From contig JAFMFD010000016.1 in NCBI GenBank assembly GCA_017856385.1, forward strand, positions 1 to 34,112: a stretch of 34,112 nucleotides of DNA. The letters run 5' to 3'. A program made the position numbers and the translations under genes. This DNA comes from Actinomycetota bacterium. GTDB taxonomy: Bacteria > Actinomycetota > Actinomycetes > S36-B12. The stretch's first letter is position 1. Each line of letters starts with the position of its first letter. Positions 17,068 through 22,706 of this stretch are shown piece by piece. Under the pieces are notes generated by a model that worked only from the letters and a program-made list of their open reading frames with translations, made no database searches and was not told the DNA's origin.

Positions 17068-18759
17068 ATGGAGTCCGGTTTCGAGTTCGACGTGGTGGTC
17101 CTCGGCAGCGGCGCCGCGGGGCTGACAGCGGGCCTCGCCGCCGCCCAGCAGGGCGCCACCGTGGGACTGTTCGAGAAGGCCGACGTGCTCGGCGGATCCA
17201 GTGCGATCTCCGGGGGGGTCCCGTGGATCCCCCTGAACCACCATCAGGACGAGGCCGGTGTCGCCGACTCCCGCGAGGATGCCCTGGCCTACCTGGACTC
17301 ACTGTCGCTGGGCCGGATGGACCCGACGATGGCGGAGACGTTCGTCGACAACGGCCGCGCGACGATCGAATGGCTCGAGGACACCACTGCCGCGAGCTTC
17401 ACGCTGCTGCCGCGCTACCCCGACTACCACCCCGAGAATCCCGGTGGCCGGCCCGACGGCGGTCGCTCCCTCGACCCCGGCCTGTTCTGCTACGCCGAGC
17501 TCGGCGCCTGGCAGGACCGCGTTGCGCGCAGCAAGCGCAGTGCGCACCTGAAGATCACCGACACCACGCTCGGCGGCGGCACCGGTCATCTGCCCGAGGA
17601 GGAGATGCAGCGGCGCATCGACCTCGACCTGCGCGGGTGCGGCAACGCGCTCGTCGGCCCGATCATCAAGGCGCTGCTCGACCTCGGCGTCGAGCCCGTG
17701 GTCAATGCACGGGCCCTCGATCTGCTCGTCGAGAACGGACGCGTCGCAGGTGTGCGGCTGGAGATCGACGGCGAGAAGCGCGTGGTGCGCGCACGCCGCG
17801 GAGTCGTGCTCGCCACGGGTGGCTTCGAGTGGAACACCGACCTGGTGTCGGAGTTCCTGCGCGGGCCGATGACCGCACCCACGTCGGTCCCGACCAACAC
17901 CGGCGACGGCCTGCTCATGGCGATGCGCGTGGGCGCCCGCCTGGCCAACATGGGCCAGGCGTGGTGGGTGCCGGCGGTCAGGATTCCCGGCGACACCGCA
18001 TTCGGTGAGCCGAGGTCGAACCTCGTCAACCGCGAGCGCACCCTTCCCGGCTCGATCATGGTGAACTCCGCCGGCCGCCGCTTCACCAATGAGGCCAGCA
18101 ACTACAACGCGCTCGGCGGCGCGTTCCACCAGCTCGATCCCGTCACGTTCACCTACGCCAACCTGCCCGCGTGGCTCGTCTTCGACCACGCGCACGCCGA
18201 GCGCTATGGCACTTTCGGCGCCCCCGCAGGCACGCCCGTTCCGGAGTGGGTCACCAGCGCCGACTCGGTGCGCGACCTCGCAGACACGCTGGGCATCGAC
18301 GCGGAAGGCCTCGAGCGCACGATCGAGCGCTGGAACGGCTTCGTCGCGCAGGACCACGATGACGACTTCCGTCGCGGCGACAGCGCGTACGACCGCTGGA
18401 GCGGTGACGGTGACCACCGCTTCACGACCGCCTCGACGCTGGGGCCGATCGCAACCGCGCCGTTCTACGCCGTGCCGGTCGAGTCCGGCACCCTCGGCAC
18501 CAGCGGCGGGCCGCGCACCGACGCTTCCGGTCACGTTCTCGACACGCACCTGGTGCCGATCCCGGGCCTGTTTGCCGCCGGCAACGTCGCTGCCGCCCCG
18601 ACCGCGATGGCCTACGGAGGCGCGGGCGGCACTCTCGGGCCGATTCTGGTGTTCGGTCGCCTCGCGGGCCTGGCCGCGGCGCAGGAGCCAGAGTGGCCCG
18701 CGCTCAGCGAGGACGAGCTCGATGACGTGGCAGGGGTCCTCAGACCGACGCTCGAATGA
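17068..18759 (+). CDS. FAD-dependent dehydrogenase, 3-ketosteroid-delta1-dehydrogenase-like
   Basis: 563-residue flavoprotein of the fumarate reductase/KstD group. N-terminal dinucleotide loop GSGAAGLTAG from residue 13, then FEKADVLGGSSAISGG. The C-terminal FAD segment is GLFAAGNVAAAPTAMAYGGA ending GGTLGP, followed by a conserved VFG. Tyr516 and Gly520 occupy the Tyr-xxx-Gly positions that in KstD polarise the substrate ketone, so delta1-dehydrogenation of a 3-ketosteroid-like or other cyclic ketone is plausible. The rest of the steroid pathway is not present, and the protein could act on another cyclic enone. It has a leaderless-type promoter and converges on the SET-like gene with a 20-bp overlap. 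Confidence 0.88.
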   Translation: MESGFEFDVVVLGSGAAGLTAGLAAAQQGATVGLFEKADVLGGSSAISGGVPWIPLNHHQDEAGVADSREDALAYLDSLSLGRMDPTMAETFVDNGRATIEWLEDTTAASFTLLPRYPDYHPENPGGRPDGGRSLDPGLFCYAELGAWQDRVARSKRSAHLKITDTTLGGGTGHLPEEEMQRRIDLDLRGCGNALVGPIIKALLDLGVEPVVNARALDLLVENGRVAGVRLEIDGEKRVVRARRGVVLATGGFEWNTDLVSEFLRGPMTAPTSVPTNTGDGLLMAMRVGARLANMGQAWWVPAVRIPGDTAFGEPRSNLVNRERTLPGSIMVNSAGRRFTNEASNYNALGGAFHQLDPVTFTYANLPAWLVFDHAHAERYGTFGAPAGTPVPEWVTSADSVRDLADTLGIDAEGLERTIERWNGFVAQDHDDDFRRGDSAYDRWSGDGDHRFTTASTLGPIATAPFYAVPVESGTLGTSGGPRTDASGHVLDTHLVPIPGLFAAGNVAAAPTAMAYGGAGGTLGPILVFGRLAGLAAAQEPEWPALSEDELDDVAGVLRPTLE

Positions 18760-19771
18760 CCTGGGCCTGAACCTCCGCCGCTCGCGCGATCGTTGCCGCC
18801 GCGGCACCTGAGCAGGTCGTCGTAGCGGAGAGCAGAACGTCGAGCAGCCGCAGGTTCGCGTTCGCAATCGCCGCGACGACGCCCGCGGGCAGCACGCCCG
18901 TCTGCCCCGCGCCGAACGTCACGTGGCTCGCGACAAGGCCGTCACTCGATCGTCGCACCTGCGTGGGCATGAGCGTTCCGTCACGACGACGACCCTGAGC
19001 CTGCACCCGCACACGACCGAACCCCGGCACATCCACGGACACGGGAGCACTGTGGGCGATGGCAGAGTCCGAAGCCACGAATCCGTAGACCACCGCCATG
19101 CCAATCGCGTCGCGCTGCAGCCCGTAGTCCAGTCGGCACTCCCCCAACTCACCCGCATGCGCGATGTCGACGCTGAATTCCGTTCCTGACCACGTCGGCG
19201 TGGAGCCATCACGTGCGTGGTCCAGCAGGTCGATGAGCGGGACCGCAACCGGCTCAACAGCGCCATCGTCGCCCACCGGCAGCCGGAACACCCGATCGCT
19301 CCAGAACAGGCCCGCCGCCGATGGCTGCCGTCGACGGAAGCGGGGCCGGAATGCGCGGATGGCGTCGATCACGTCGTCGCTGAAGTCGGGAGCGAGGACC
19401 GGATGCGTCGACACGAGCCACGGGATCTTTCCGCAGGCGTTGTGGAGAGCAGCCTGCAGGACCAGCAGCTCGGTCTCGATCGAGCTGAACTCGGAAGGCA
19501 CCGCGTCGAACTCCAGTGCCTCGCTGGACGTGGACCAGCCAACCCGGCCGATGCGCACGAGTGCCGAGCGCGGGATGCGCAGCAGAGGCTCACCGGCAAT
19601 GCCCTCGCATCGCACGCTCCCCTGCCCCTGCCGGATCACGAACCGCGCCGCAGGGTGGACCCACCCGCCAGCCTCCGCCACCGCATCGACGGTGCCGGCC
19701 AGCAGGTCGGCTACGAGGTCGTCGTCGCAGACCACATGACGCCACGGGTCGAAGGCCGGCACAGACGTCAT
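18740..19771 (-). CDS. Putative SET-domain protein, SETD6/RuBisCO-LSMT-like
   Basis: 343 residues from ATG 19771; a frame running further upstream only reads through the kinase gene. By eye it follows the layout of LSMT/SETD proteins, which methylate protein lysines with SAM. An N-terminal stretch at residues 51-72 contains EGIAGEPLLRIPRSALV, like the family's opening strand. An FW-SDRVFRLP segment precedes PLIDLLDHARDG at 178-189, in the place of P-ADxxNHS but with Asp for Asn. Residues 210-232 contain LDYGLQRDAIGMAVVYGFV, like the family's terminal YD-x-N-x-E-x-x-DYGF, with Tyr229 as the likely catalytic tyrosine. It lies 14 bp behind the kinase gene. Remote homology judged by eye; a catalytically altered relative is possible. 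Confidence 0.55.
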   Translation of the reverse strand: MTSVPAFDPWRHVVCDDDLVADLLAGTVDAVAEAGGWVHPAARFVIRQGQGSVRCEGIAGEPLLRIPRSALVRIGRVGWSTSSEALEFDAVPSEFSSIETELLVLQAALHNACGKIPWLVSTHPVLAPDFSDDVIDAIRAFRPRFRRRQPSAAGLFWSDRVFRLPVGDDGAVEPVAVPLIDLLDHARDGSTPTWSGTEFSVDIAHAGELGECRLDYGLQRDAIGMAVVYGFVASDSAIAHSAPVSVDVPGFGRVRVQAQGRRRDGTLMPTQVRRSSDGLVASHVTFGAGQTGVLPAGVVAAIANANLRLLDVLLSATTTCSGAAAATIARAAEVQAQVIRASV

Positions 19772-19785
19772 GCACGCCTGCTCGA

Positions 19786-20856
19786 TCAGGAGGCCAGGCC
19801 GGCGATCGCGCCGTGCGCGAGGACCTGTCGGCCCATCGCGGCGAGCGCCTCGGTGGCACTGCGCATGCCGTCGATCTCCGCTGCGCCTGCGCCGAGCTGC
19901 TGGCCCTGCAGGCTGCGAGCGAGGATCGACTCCATGATGACGGCGAGCTTGAAGCACGCCAGGGCGGTGCACGCATCGAGGCCGTCCAGCCGCGACCCCG
20001 TGCGCTCGGCGTAGCGCTCGACCACGCGCTCACGCGTCCAGAAGCCCGGGCGGTCGGTGATGTGCTCGGCGACGGGCACACTCGCGCGCAGGGCATCACC
20101 CGGGTCCGTCCAGTAGACGAGAGTGACGGCGAGGTCCATGACGGGATCGCCGAGCGTCGCCATCTCCCAGTCGACGACCGCCTGCACGGTCGGCTCCTGC
20201 AGCCCAAGGATGGTGTTGTCGAGCCGATAGTCGCCGTGCACGATCGCGGCTCGCCCTGCGGGCACGGAGGGGATCACCGTCTCTAGCGCGGACTGCAGTG
20301 CATCCACGTCACTGACCTCACGGGTCTTGGTCAGCTGCCACTGCTGCGACCAGCGACGCACCTGGCGCTCGAGGTAGCCATCCGGTCGCCCCAGCTCGCC
20401 CAGGCCCGCAGCCTCGGCGTCGATGGCGTGGAGGTCGGCCAGCGTGTCGACCAGGGATGCGCAGATGGCACCGGCCTCGACGGGATCGATCGCCGCCGCC
20501 CTGTCCTGCGAGTCGATGACGCGACCGTCGACGAAGCCCATCAGCAAGAACGATGCGCCGATGACGCCGTCGTCCTGGCACAGCGCCACCACCGGTGGCG
20601 TCGGGAAGCCCACGCTGTTGAGTCCGGACAGCACGCGGAACTCGCGCACCATGTCGTGCGCGCTGGGCAGGACGTGGCCGAGCGGCGGTCGGCGCAGGAC
20701 CCAGTCACCCCCCGAGGCATCGCGGAGGCGGTAGCTCACATTCGACCGCCCCCCTGCCAGGAGCGAGGCTCGTAGCGGTGCGGAGTCGTCGACCGGGATG
20801 CCCGACGCCTGCATCCACGCCGTCAGGGGCACGAGCCGCAGGCCCTCGGGATCCAT
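19786..20856 (-). CDS. APH-family phosphotransferase, ACAD10/11-kinase/LvaA-like
   Basis: 356-residue protein-kinase-like phosphotransferase. ATG at 20856 has GGAGGGC upstream. AGGRSNVSYRL is the nucleotide-loop strand, WVLRRPP carries the ATP lysine-like position, HGDYRLDN at 207-214 is the catalytic loop (Asp209, Asn214) and VVDWEMATLGDP holds the metal-binding Asp229. These motifs fit the family annotated as aminoglycoside phosphotransferase but found with acyl-CoA dehydrogenases, including the kinase domain of ACAD10/ACAD11 and LvaA, which phosphorylate the 4-hydroxyl of acyl-CoAs. Antibiotic resistance is therefore unlikely. The fitting dehydrogenase is at 6077. It leads an operon with the SET-like gene. 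Confidence 0.88.
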   Translation of the reverse strand: MDPEGLRLVPLTAWMQASGIPVDDSAPLRASLLAGGRSNVSYRLRDASGGDWVLRRPPLGHVLPSAHDMVREFRVLSGLNSVGFPTPPVVALCQDDGVIGASFLLMGFVDGRVIDSQDRAAAIDPVEAGAICASLVDTLADLHAIDAEAAGLGELGRPDGYLERQVRRWSQQWQLTKTREVSDVDALQSALETVIPSVPAGRAAIVHGDYRLDNTILGLQEPTVQAVVDWEMATLGDPVMDLAVTLVYWTDPGDALRASVPVAEHITDRPGFWTRERVVERYAERTGSRLDGLDACTALACFKLAVIMESILARSLQGQQLGAGAAEIDGMRSATEALAAMGRQVLAHGAIAGLAS

Positions 20857-20947
20857 CGCGTACGCCCTCCAGGGTCGTCTTGCCGGCGGCCTGTAACGAT
20901 ACCCCCCGAGCGACCGGTCCCCGACGTGCATTTCCGGCGACGACCAC

Positions 20948-20960: not shown

Positions 20961-21446
20961 ATGACCATCGCCATCGGAGATCGCATCCCTGACGTCACCG
21001 TCTCGATCATGAAGGACGGATCCCCCACTGACGTCTCGTCCCTGGAGCTGCTCGGCAGCGGCCGCGTCGTGCTCTTTGCCGTGCCCGGTGCGTTCACGCC
21101 CGGCTGCTCGCGCGTGCACCTGCCCGGCTATGCCGAGCGCGCCGGCGAGATCGCCGGCAAGGGTGTCGACCGAATCGCGTGCATCTCCGTCAACGACACG
21201 TTCGTGATGGATGCCTGGGGCGAGGCCCACGACGTCAACGACACGATCACGATGATCGGCGACGGCGATGCCCTTTTCACCGAGGCCGTGGGCCTGGAGG
21301 TCGAGGTGCCGAGCGCGGGACTCGGCCGTCGCTCGCAGCGCTACGCGATGATCCTGCAGGACGGCGTCGTGCAGGAGCTCATGCTCGAGGACAACGGCCT
21401 GTCGGTCGCCAACAGCGCTGCGGAGTGCGTGCTCACGCGCCTGTGA
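20961..21446 (+). CDS. Peroxiredoxin, Prx5-type
   Basis: 161-residue thiol peroxidase of the Prx5 subfamily, reducing hydrogen peroxide and alkyl hydroperoxides in the cytoplasm. VPGAFTPGCS followed by HLPGY is the diagnostic active site with peroxidatic Cys49. The only other cysteines are Cys74 (RIACIS) and one near the C-terminus (AECVLT). No glutaredoxin domain is fused, so it would depend on an external thiol. ATG at 20961 was chosen over a longer frame because a -10 box stands directly upstream. It is divergent from the kinase gene and overlaps the leftward ATP-grasp gene by 14 bp at its 3' end. Confidence 0.93.
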   Translation: MTIAIGDRIPDVTVSIMKDGSPTDVSSLELLGSGRVVLFAVPGAFTPGCSRVHLPGYAERAGEIAGKGVDRIACISVNDTFVMDAWGEAHDVNDTITMIGDGDALFTEAVGLEVEVPSAGLGRRSQRYAMILQDGVVQELMLEDNGLSVANSAAECVLTRL

Positions 21447-22326
21447 CGCGGCGGGCGATCGCGGCCGCGAACCGGTCGGCGGCGCCCGAGGAGTGGGCGA
21501 GGAACACCGACGGCTCGGTGAGCTCGAGCTCGAGCACCATCGGTGACATGTCGGCGTCGCGGATGAGGTCCACCCGGGCATAGAGCGGGGCTCCGCCGGG
21601 GATCATGTCGAGGGCCCGACGACCGACGTCCAGCTCGTCGTCGGTCGGATCGCGGGGGTCGATCTGCTCGCGCAGGAAGAGCCCCTCGACCTGCTCCCCT
21701 TCCTCGCCGCGGGCGAGCAGGGGACCCTTGCGGATCGCATGCGAGAACTCCCCGTCGAAGTACAGCAGCGCGGTCTCGCCCGCGAGGTCGACGGAGGCGA
21801 TGTAGGGCTGCACCATCGCCGTGCGACCGGCCGTCATCAGCCCCCCGGCGTGGTCGAGGATTCGACCGGCATCCTCGCGGGTGTCGTAGCGGGCGGTGTC
21901 GCGCGACCCGCACGAGATCGCCGGCTTGACGACGACCTCGCGCCACGAGCGACGCTCCTCGCCCGACCAGCCCTGAGGGTCATCACCGGGCTCGAGGAAC
22001 ATCGTGGGCACGACGGGCACACCCGCATCGGCGAGGTCGCGCAGGTAGCGCTTGTCGGTGTTCCACCGCAGGACGTGCGCCGGGTTGAACAGCCGCGTCG
22101 CCGCTGAGACGTGGTCGACCCAGGCGAGGTAGGCGTCGCGGTCGTTCGCGTAGTCCCATGTGCCACGCACGACGACGACGTCGAAAGCGCCCCAGTCGAC
22201 CGTCGGGTCGGTCCAGACGGCCGGCACCCCCTCGAGGCCGATGGCGGCCAGCGCCGGGAGCAGCAGCTGGTCGTCCTCGTCCAGGACGGGGAACTCCTGG
22301 CACGTCGCCAGACCGATGCGGGGCAC
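21433..22326 (-). CDS. ATP-grasp family protein
   Basis: 297-residue ATP-grasp enzyme of the RimK/prokaryotic glutathione synthetase type, expected to form an amide or ester bond by way of an acyl phosphate. NTDKRYLRDLADAGVPVVPT opens the central domain, VVVKPAISCGSRDT gives the ATP-binding lysine strand, GETALLYFDGEF the hinge, and ARVDLI plus LELELTEPSVFL the metal-binding end. The resemblance in layout is to DcsG-like and other stand-alone ligases; the substrate is unknown. The start is GTG at 22326, overlapping the last base of the lipoprotein stop (TAGTG), so it is translationally coupled to it. Its 3' end overlaps the peroxiredoxin gene. Confidence 0.85.
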   Translation of the reverse strand: MPRIGLATCQEFPVLDEDDQLLLPALAAIGLEGVPAVWTDPTVDWGAFDVVVVRGTWDYANDRDAYLAWVDHVSAATRLFNPAHVLRWNTDKRYLRDLADAGVPVVPTMFLEPGDDPQGWSGEERRSWREVVVKPAISCGSRDTARYDTREDAGRILDHAGGLMTAGRTAMVQPYIASVDLAGETALLYFDGEFSHAIRKGPLLARGEEGEQVEGLFLREQIDPRDPTDDELDVGRRALDMIPGGAPLYARVDLIRDADMSPMVLELELTEPSVFLAHSSGAADRFAAAIARRVTGA

Positions 22327-22706
22327 TACTCGCTGATCGTCAGGGCGATCTCGCGCGTCGCGCCGTCCGGGCCGGTGAGCGTCAGGGTGGCCTCGCCCGC
22401 AGCCAGGCACTTGCCGCCCGGGTTGAACAGGGCGTCCCCCTCCTGCTTCGCCTGGGTCACCTCGACGAGGGCGGTGTCGCTGGAGTCGATGGTCGTCCCG
22501 GCGAGCTGCTCCTCGGGGATGATCACGTCGAGGAAGTTGCCGACCTTGCAGGTGGCCGAGGTCTGGTCCTCGGTGATGATCACCGGGGGCAGGGCCTGCG
22601 CGGCGTCGCCGGTGTCGGCGGAGTCGCTCGACGACGAGCAGCCGGCCAGGACACCCGCGCCGATCAGGGCGGCGGCGGCAATGGCGGTGGTACGCATGCG
22701 GAACAT
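22326..22706 (-). CDS. Small secreted lipoprotein
   Basis: 126-residue exported lipoprotein of unknown function. ATG at 22706 follows AAGGGAG. The signal peptide is MFRMRTTAIAAAALIGAG followed by a VLAGC lipobox, so the mature protein begins with lipidated cysteine, an SSSSDSADTGDAA linker and a domain of about 90 residues. That domain has two cysteines (TCKVG and GGKCLAAGEA), which may pair outside the membrane. The later segment EATLTLTGPDGATREIALTI reads like beta strands of an Ig-like fold. It is coupled to the ATP-grasp gene, though one product is exterior and the other cytoplasmic. No named family recognised. Confidence 0.85.
   Translation of the reverse strand: MFRMRTTAIAAAALIGAGVLAGCSSSSDSADTGDAAQALPPVIITEDQTSATCKVGNFLDVIIPEEQLAGTTIDSSDTALVEVTQAKQEGDALFNPGGKCLAAGEATLTLTGPDGATREIALTISE

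What the first reader, a model, noticed from the sequence alone, without database searches (positions are those of the whole stretch)
18740..19771. A SETD6/RuBisCO-LSMT-like SET protein encoded next to an acyl-CoA-type kinase in an actinomycete
The 343-residue product follows the SETD/LSMT order: an opening strand with a basic residue after LLRIP, PLIDLLDHARDG in the P-ADxxNHS place, and LDYGLQRDAIGMAVVYGFV in the place of the terminal YD-x-N-x-E-x-x-DYGF. Such SET proteins are typically eukaryotic lysine methyltransferases. The NH-to-DH change may alter SAM binding or activity. A kinase gene lies 14 bp upstream.
Basis: partly seen in the sequence, partly recalled or inferred. Interest (0 to 1): 0.68.

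Follow-up and report, generated by a model that had tools for sequence, protein, structure and literature searches.

The report
Bacterial SETD6-like methyltransferase, some lasso-linked
A freshwater actinobacterium carries an unannotated enzyme built like the eukaryotic SETD6/SETD3/RuBisCO methyltransferases, and distant bacterial relatives of it sit beside lasso-peptide genes, so this class of protein methyltransferase has a bacterial branch that may decorate peptides.

Summary
Window 18740-19771 (minus strand, 343 aa) is a real gene of a family that Pfam and NCBIfam miss. An AlphaFold2 model (pLDDT 91.8) matches SETD6, SETD3, RuBisCO LSMT and the plastid-RNA-polymerase homologue before anything else: all 35 Foldseek hits at E<=1e-3, VIA Z 15.9 for SETD6 over 270 residues, next SET proteins Z 6.5. 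A family profile independently ranks SETD6, LSMT and SETD3 first among PDB sequences. Cofactor- and catalysis-linked residues are kept: R160, H185, Y216, G230, F231. The window's N-to-D change at 184 recurs in 5 of 31 homologues with the rest of the pocket intact, so it need not mean inactivity. F162 and I180 fit a lysine pocket better than SETD3's histidine pocket. The kinase pairing is real (ACAD10/11-like, 14 bp away) but holds in only three genomes. Unexpectedly, the divergent branch lies within about 2 kb of lasso-peptide B2 genes at six loci, often with RRE, cyclase-like and ABC exporter genes. The window's clade is not lasso-linked. Best reading: a bacterial SETD-class, probably lysine, N-methyltransferase family; substrate unknown here, possibly the lasso precursor in the divergent branch.

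The parts
18740..19771 (-). SETD6/SETD3/LSMT-class SET protein, 343 aa (P0001)
19217..19222 (-). Codons of D184-H185, place of the SETD3 N278-H279 / SETD6 NH cofactor motif
   Evidence: alignment; column counts; codon positions follow from the 343-aa frame
19124..19126 (-). Codon of Y216, place of the SETD6 Y285 / SETD3 Y313 tyrosine; invariant in 31 of 31
19082..19084 (-). Codon of G230 of the terminal YGF; invariant in 31 of 31
19292..19294 (-). Codon of R160, place of SETD3 R254, which binds the cofactor carboxylate; 30 of 31
19786..20931 (-). APH-fold kinase of ACAD10/11 type, 381 aa, 14 bp upstream
   Evidence: adjacent to the SET gene in three genomes only
17068..18759 (+). FAD_binding_2 flavoprotein (ketosteroid dehydrogenase-like), convergent, overlaps the 3' end of the SET gene by 20 bp; a neighbour, not thought to be part of the same system

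Best explanation
P0001 is a bacterial member of the SETD6/SETD3/RuBisCO-LSMT class of SET proteins and most likely a working SAM-dependent N-methyltransferase, probably acting on a lysine side chain of a peptide or protein. It would bind SAM in the cleft between the SET core and the C-terminal helices. R160 would hold the cofactor carboxylate, D184/H185 the ribose, amino group and adenine, and F231 would stack on the adenine. The substrate side chain would enter beside F162, Y216 and Y229. Shown here: predicted fold, residue conservation and purifying selection. Inferred: activity, lysine preference and cofactor binding. The substrate of the window's enzyme is unknown; a divergent branch linked to lasso-peptide clusters probably methylates the lasso precursor peptide.
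For: Model pLDDT 91.8, pTM 0.85. All 35 Foldseek hits at E<=1e-3 are SETD6, SETD3, LSMT or the plastid RNA polymerase homologue. VIA Z 15.9 for SETD6 over residues 21-343, then a drop to 6.5 outside the class. Profile-only PDB search ranks SETD6 (E 0.005), LSMT (0.017) and SETD3 (0.02) first (a smaller profile gave the same order). R160 30/31, H185 31/31, Y216 31/31, G230 31/31, F231 24/31 map to SETD3 R254, H279, Y313, G326, F327, of which R254, H279, Y313 and F327 contact AdoHcy (PMC6400499). SETD6 Y285A abolishes activity (PMC11958702). F162 is F in 23/31, at the place where LSMT and SETD6 carry the Phe that contacts lysine and SETD3 has N256 (PMC6400499); N256F with W274A gave SETD3 lysine activity (PMC8537074), and position 180 is I/V/L in 30/31. 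dN/dS 0.17-0.27 for close pairs.
Against: N278 of SETD3, whose Ala mutant is severely impaired, is Asp here. The second Gly of GxG is missing in nearly all homologues (present in 2 of 31, P0001 among them). Six short homologues (about 276 aa) lack most of the C-terminal region that SETD6 needs for activity. No Pfam SET or Rubis-subs-bind model hits any of 23 members. No biochemical evidence exists.
Confidence: 0.72

Rival explanations
1. A SET-fold protein that has lost methyltransferase activity and now serves as a binding or scaffold protein.
For: Asn-to-Asp at the cofactor position in the window and 4 other homologues; second Gly of GxG kept in only 2 of 31; six C-terminally short members.
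Against: H185, Y216 and G230 invariant and R160 30/31 across very divergent homologues, including all five that carry Asp. A scaffold would not be expected to keep the catalytic tyrosine.
Confidence: 0.15
2. A histidine (SETD3-like) or other side-chain methyltransferase rather than a lysine enzyme.
Against: The two SETD3 histidine-pocket residues, N256 and W274, are F162 and I180 here; F at that place is the LSMT/SETD6 type.
Confidence: 0.2
3. The enzyme works in the pathway of its upstream ACAD10/11-like kinase, for instance by modifying the kinase or an acyl-CoA enzyme.
For: 14 bp spacing, same strand, also in L031 and L032; surroundings rich in enoyl-CoA hydratase and short-chain dehydrogenase genes.
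Against: The kinase is not the immediate neighbour of any other homologue examined, same-genus ones included.
Confidence: 0.1
4. Recent transfer of a eukaryotic SETD gene into one bacterium, or contamination.
For: The SETD class is described from eukaryotes; GC3 of the gene is 0.805 against 0.85-0.945 for neighbours.
Against: Diverse homologues in many genera of freshwater actinobacteria and in picocyanobacteria, embedded among bacterial genes.
Confidence: 0.04

Closest known systems
SETD6 (human, PDB 3QXY)
   Same: Best structural match, Z 15.9 over 270 residues; catalytic Y285, Y297 place, NH place, YGF, Phe of the lysine channel by position
   Different: 16% identity; shorter (343 vs 473 aa); the Asn of NH is Asp in the window; carries an Arg at the SETD3 R254 place that SETD6 lacks
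RuBisCO large subunit methyltransferase (LSMT, PDB 1MLV/2H21)
   Same: Z 13.4; Arg and Phe of the RxF stretch, NH/DH, catalytic Tyr, YGF
   Different: 12% identity; no Pfam Rubis-subs-bind match
SETD3 actin-histidine methyltransferase
   Same: Z 15.2; R254, H279, Y313 and F327 equivalents kept
   Different: N256 and W274 of the histidine pocket are Phe and Ile
Bacterial SET protein LegAS4 of Legionella (PDB 5CZY)
   Same: SET core
   Different: Much weaker match, Z 6.5 over 127 residues
Lasso-peptide tailoring methyltransferase StspM
   Same: A methyltransferase gene beside lasso genes (for the divergent branch only)
   Different: StspM is a C-terminal carboxyl O-methyltransferase (PMC8498205); the family here has the SET fold

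Membership tests
SETD3/SETD6/LSMT class of SET proteins | Overall fold: SET core, helical iSET insertion, C-terminal helical domain | tested here: met
   Z 12-16 to this class only, aligned to residue 343; helices 97-158 lie between the strands at 62-67 and 161-165, the iSET place. The knot was not inspected directly.
SETD3/SETD6/LSMT class of SET proteins | Catalytic tyrosine (SETD6 Y285, SETD3 Y313) | tested here: met
   Y216, 31 of 31
SETD3/SETD6/LSMT class of SET proteins | Asn-His cofactor motif | tested here: inconclusive
   His 31/31; Asn 26/31, Asp in the window and 4 others
SETD3/SETD6/LSMT class of SET proteins | GxG near the N-terminus of SET | tested here: inconclusive
   P0001 has G49-Q-G51 and G49 is 27/31, but the second Gly is in 2/31 only; the alignment there is loose
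SETD3/SETD6/LSMT class of SET proteins | Aromatic lysine channel (SETD6 F225, Y285, Y297) | tested here: met
   F162 23/31, Y216 31/31, Y229 27/31
SETD3/SETD6/LSMT class of SET proteins | SAM-dependent methyltransferase activity | not testable with these tools
   needs protein
SETD3-type histidine methyltransferase | Asn256 and Trp274 of the histidine pocket | tested here: not met
   F162 and I180; never N or W in 31 homologues
Pfam SET (PF00856) / Rubis-subs-bind (PF09273) | Match to the curated profile | tested here: not met
   no match at E<=10 for any of 23 members
Lasso-peptide tailoring enzyme (window protein) | Gene beside lasso B1/B2/cyclase genes | tested here: not met
   no B2-type gene (PF13471) found in the window's genome
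Lasso-peptide tailoring enzyme (divergent branch) | Gene beside lasso B1/B2/cyclase genes | tested here: met
   six loci with a B2 gene within about 2.1 kb; NCBIfam lasso_biosyn_B2 over cut-off at three; RRE at L058, L059, L071, L112 and cyclase-like genes at L058, L059, L070, L071, L111
Lasso-peptide tailoring enzyme (divergent branch) | Modifies the precursor peptide | not testable with these tools
   no convincing precursor gene recognised
ACAD10/11-type kinase (upstream gene) | APH fold with the ACAD11 kinase domain among its close solved relatives | tested here: met
   PF01636 167 bits; ACAD11 8v3v E 1e-43, 3dxp 'putative acyl-CoA dehydrogenase' E 1e-52

The most novel reading that the evidence does not exclude
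The SETD-class fold has a bacterial branch whose divergent members are tailoring enzymes of lasso-type peptides, installing N-methyl-lysine (or a similar mark) on the precursor: a SET-domain methyltransferase used in RiPP biosynthesis, with the window's lasso-free clade acting on another peptide or protein.
Probability: 0.4. Interest if true: 0.8.

Novelty: new variant of a known kind. Interest (0 to 1): 0.6.

Why it matters
SETD3, SETD6 and RuBisCO LSMT are studied as eukaryotic enzymes acting on actin, NF-kB and RuBisCO. A patchy bacterial family with the same fold and pocket, missed by current profile libraries, bears on where this class came from and offers smaller enzymes (down to about 276 aa) for mechanism work. 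The lasso-cluster branch would make SET enzymes a new kind of peptide-tailoring tool and gives the family a first testable substrate. In the held paper library the only paper naming both lasso peptides and SET domains is a review of entangled proteins.

Tried and rejected
Phage or plasmid carriage: no match in viral contigs, phage records or plasmids; no viral structure at E<=1e-3. A conserved operon for the window's clade: neighbours are shared only within small groups of close genomes. A kinase-methyltransferase unit: three genomes only. Lasso function for the window's own gene: no B2-type gene in its genome. A lasso precursor gene in the linked clusters: a small-ORF scan gave no convincing candidate. 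A single-sequence PDB search gave nothing useful; the profile was needed. One family search failed on wrong coordinates.

Full report
What was checked. The quoted ORF exists on the minus strand at 18740-19771: ATG start, 343 aa, all three quoted motifs present. Longer GTG starts exist in the same frame, but homologues begin near the ATG. The kinase gene 19786-20931 ends 14 bp upstream. A flavoprotein gene on the other strand overlaps the 3' end by 20 bp.

It is a real gene family. Searches of relatives found homologues in 26 of 99 genomes at E<=0.01, and a 31-member profile found it in 28 of 166 genomes of the order, 17 of 80 good ones. Named records that match these contigs are actinobacterial MAGs, several labelled Candidatus Nanopelagicales, plus Cyanobium sp. 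Cruz CV13-4-11. It is rare elsewhere: 3 of 396 genomes sampled across the phylum and 3 of 386 in the cyanobacterial sample, one of these being the seed genome G515. dN/dS of close pairs is 0.17-0.27 (0.057/0.213, 0.117/0.601, 0.268/1.54, 0.251/1.29; the last two have near-saturated dS). No Pfam or NCBIfam model matches P0001, and none of the 23 members scanned hits a SET model.

Fold. AlphaFold2 on P0001 with 15 homologues gave pLDDT 91.8 and pTM 0.85. Foldseek against the PDB: all 35 hits at E<=1e-3 are SETD6, SETD3, RuBisCO LSMT or the homologous subunit of the plastid RNA polymerase. VIA-align: SETD6 Z 15.9 (270 residues, 4.2 A), SETD3 15.2, LSMT 13.4, all reaching model residue 343; the next SET proteins (LegAS4, SMYD2) are at 6.5 and 6.2. 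Independently, a sequence profile without structure puts SETD6, LSMT and SETD3 in the first four places of all PDB sequences, E 0.005-0.02 (same order with a smaller profile). Each E-value is modest on its own, but the ranking and the structure agree.

Pocket. From the profile alignment and published contacts (PMC6400499), SETD3 R254, N278, H279, Y313 and F327 correspond to R160, D184, H185, Y216 and F231. The mapping is from sequence alignment; residue-level structural superposition was not available. In 31 homologues these places read R 30, N 26/D 5, H 31, Y 31, F 24. SETD6 Y285, whose Ala mutant is inactive (PMC11958702), is the same tyrosine. The Asp of the window occurs in five homologues that sit in different parts of the main clade and keep R160, H185, Y216, G230 and F231, so I read it as tolerated; its effect is untested. 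SETD3's histidine specificity rests on N256 where LSMT and SETD6 have Phe, and N256F/W274A gives SETD3 lysine activity (PMC8537074). Here the two places are F162 and I180. That favours lysine over histidine; it is inference. The mapping around GxG is loose: P0001 has GQG, but the second Gly is nearly absent in the family.

Context. The kinase is ACAD10/11-like. It is adjacent to the SET gene in the window, L031 and L032 only. The window clade (19 sequences, support 100/100) has no common neighbour. No lasso B2-type gene was found in the window's genome.

The divergent branch is different. A B2-type gene (PF13471) lies about 60-2100 bp from the SET-like gene at six loci: G014 twice, G656, G515, G522 and G895. 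G515 and G522 hold similar clusters and are not independent, so this is five independent cases at most. Each genome has one or two such genes in 2.4-4.1 Mb, so proximity within about 2 kb by chance is roughly 0.2% per locus (my estimate). Of eight B2-type genes over the cut-off in divergent-branch genomes, six are adjacent; the other two (G420, G1108) are on other contigs, and at G1108 a lasso-cyclase-like gene lies beside the SET-like gene instead (L111). Several other divergent-branch members have no B2 gene in their genome. NCBIfam's lasso_biosyn_B2 passes its cut-off in L066, L070 and L071. RRE/PqqD proteins are at L058, L059, L071 and L112, cyclase-like asparagine synthetases at L058, L059, L070, L071 and L111, ABC exporters at L059 and L070, and an HprK-like protein (weak match) and a sulfotransferase at L059. 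HprK-type kinases are known lasso tailoring enzymes, a sulfotransferase gene has been noted in lasso clusters, and a known lasso methyltransferase, StspM, is a carboxyl O-methyltransferase (PMC8498205). The cyclase matches are far below NCBI's cut-off, G895 has no cyclase recognised nearby, and no precursor was recognised, so 'lasso-type' is meant by machinery, not by product. The tree places the lasso-linked members outside the window's clade but does not resolve their order; several have long branches.

Conclusion. P0001 belongs by fold and pocket to the SETD3/6/LSMT class, in a separate bacterial family, and is most likely an active lysine N-methyltransferase with unknown substrate. The lasso link of its distant relatives is the most interesting lead and is well supported as genomic association, not as function.

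Noticed in passing
window 21433-22440, minus: ATP-grasp gene close to D-cycloserine synthetase DcsG (284 bits against a cut-off of 360); other cycloserine genes were not looked for.
   Followed up: no
L068 4915-6183 and 6194-7399 (G096:C713): Two divergent SETD-like genes in tandem, followed by a gene related to one in L059 and by the start of a sulfotransferase-like gene.
   Followed up: partly
L046 / L072 (Cyanobium sp. Cruz CV13-4-11, G494:C26 3263-4337): The SETD-like gene lies in two pieces in different frames, so it is broken or the assembly has an error; no B2-type gene found in that genome.
   Followed up: partly
L061 9340-10641 (G558): Very divergent homologue (branch length about 4) in a relative of Cyanobium, beside a TPR protein that looks like a sulfotransferase.
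   Followed up: no
L010, L013, L015, L016, L017, L018: Short homologues (about 276 aa) that end soon after YGF and lack most of the C-terminal domain.
   Followed up: partly
L043 and L045: Public MAG records titled Bifidobacterium breve carry genes of this family and are probably mislabelled.
   Followed up: no
window 18743-19771: GC3 of the SET gene is 0.805, lower than nearby genes (0.85-0.945), which may hint at transfer or weaker codon selection.
   Followed up: no
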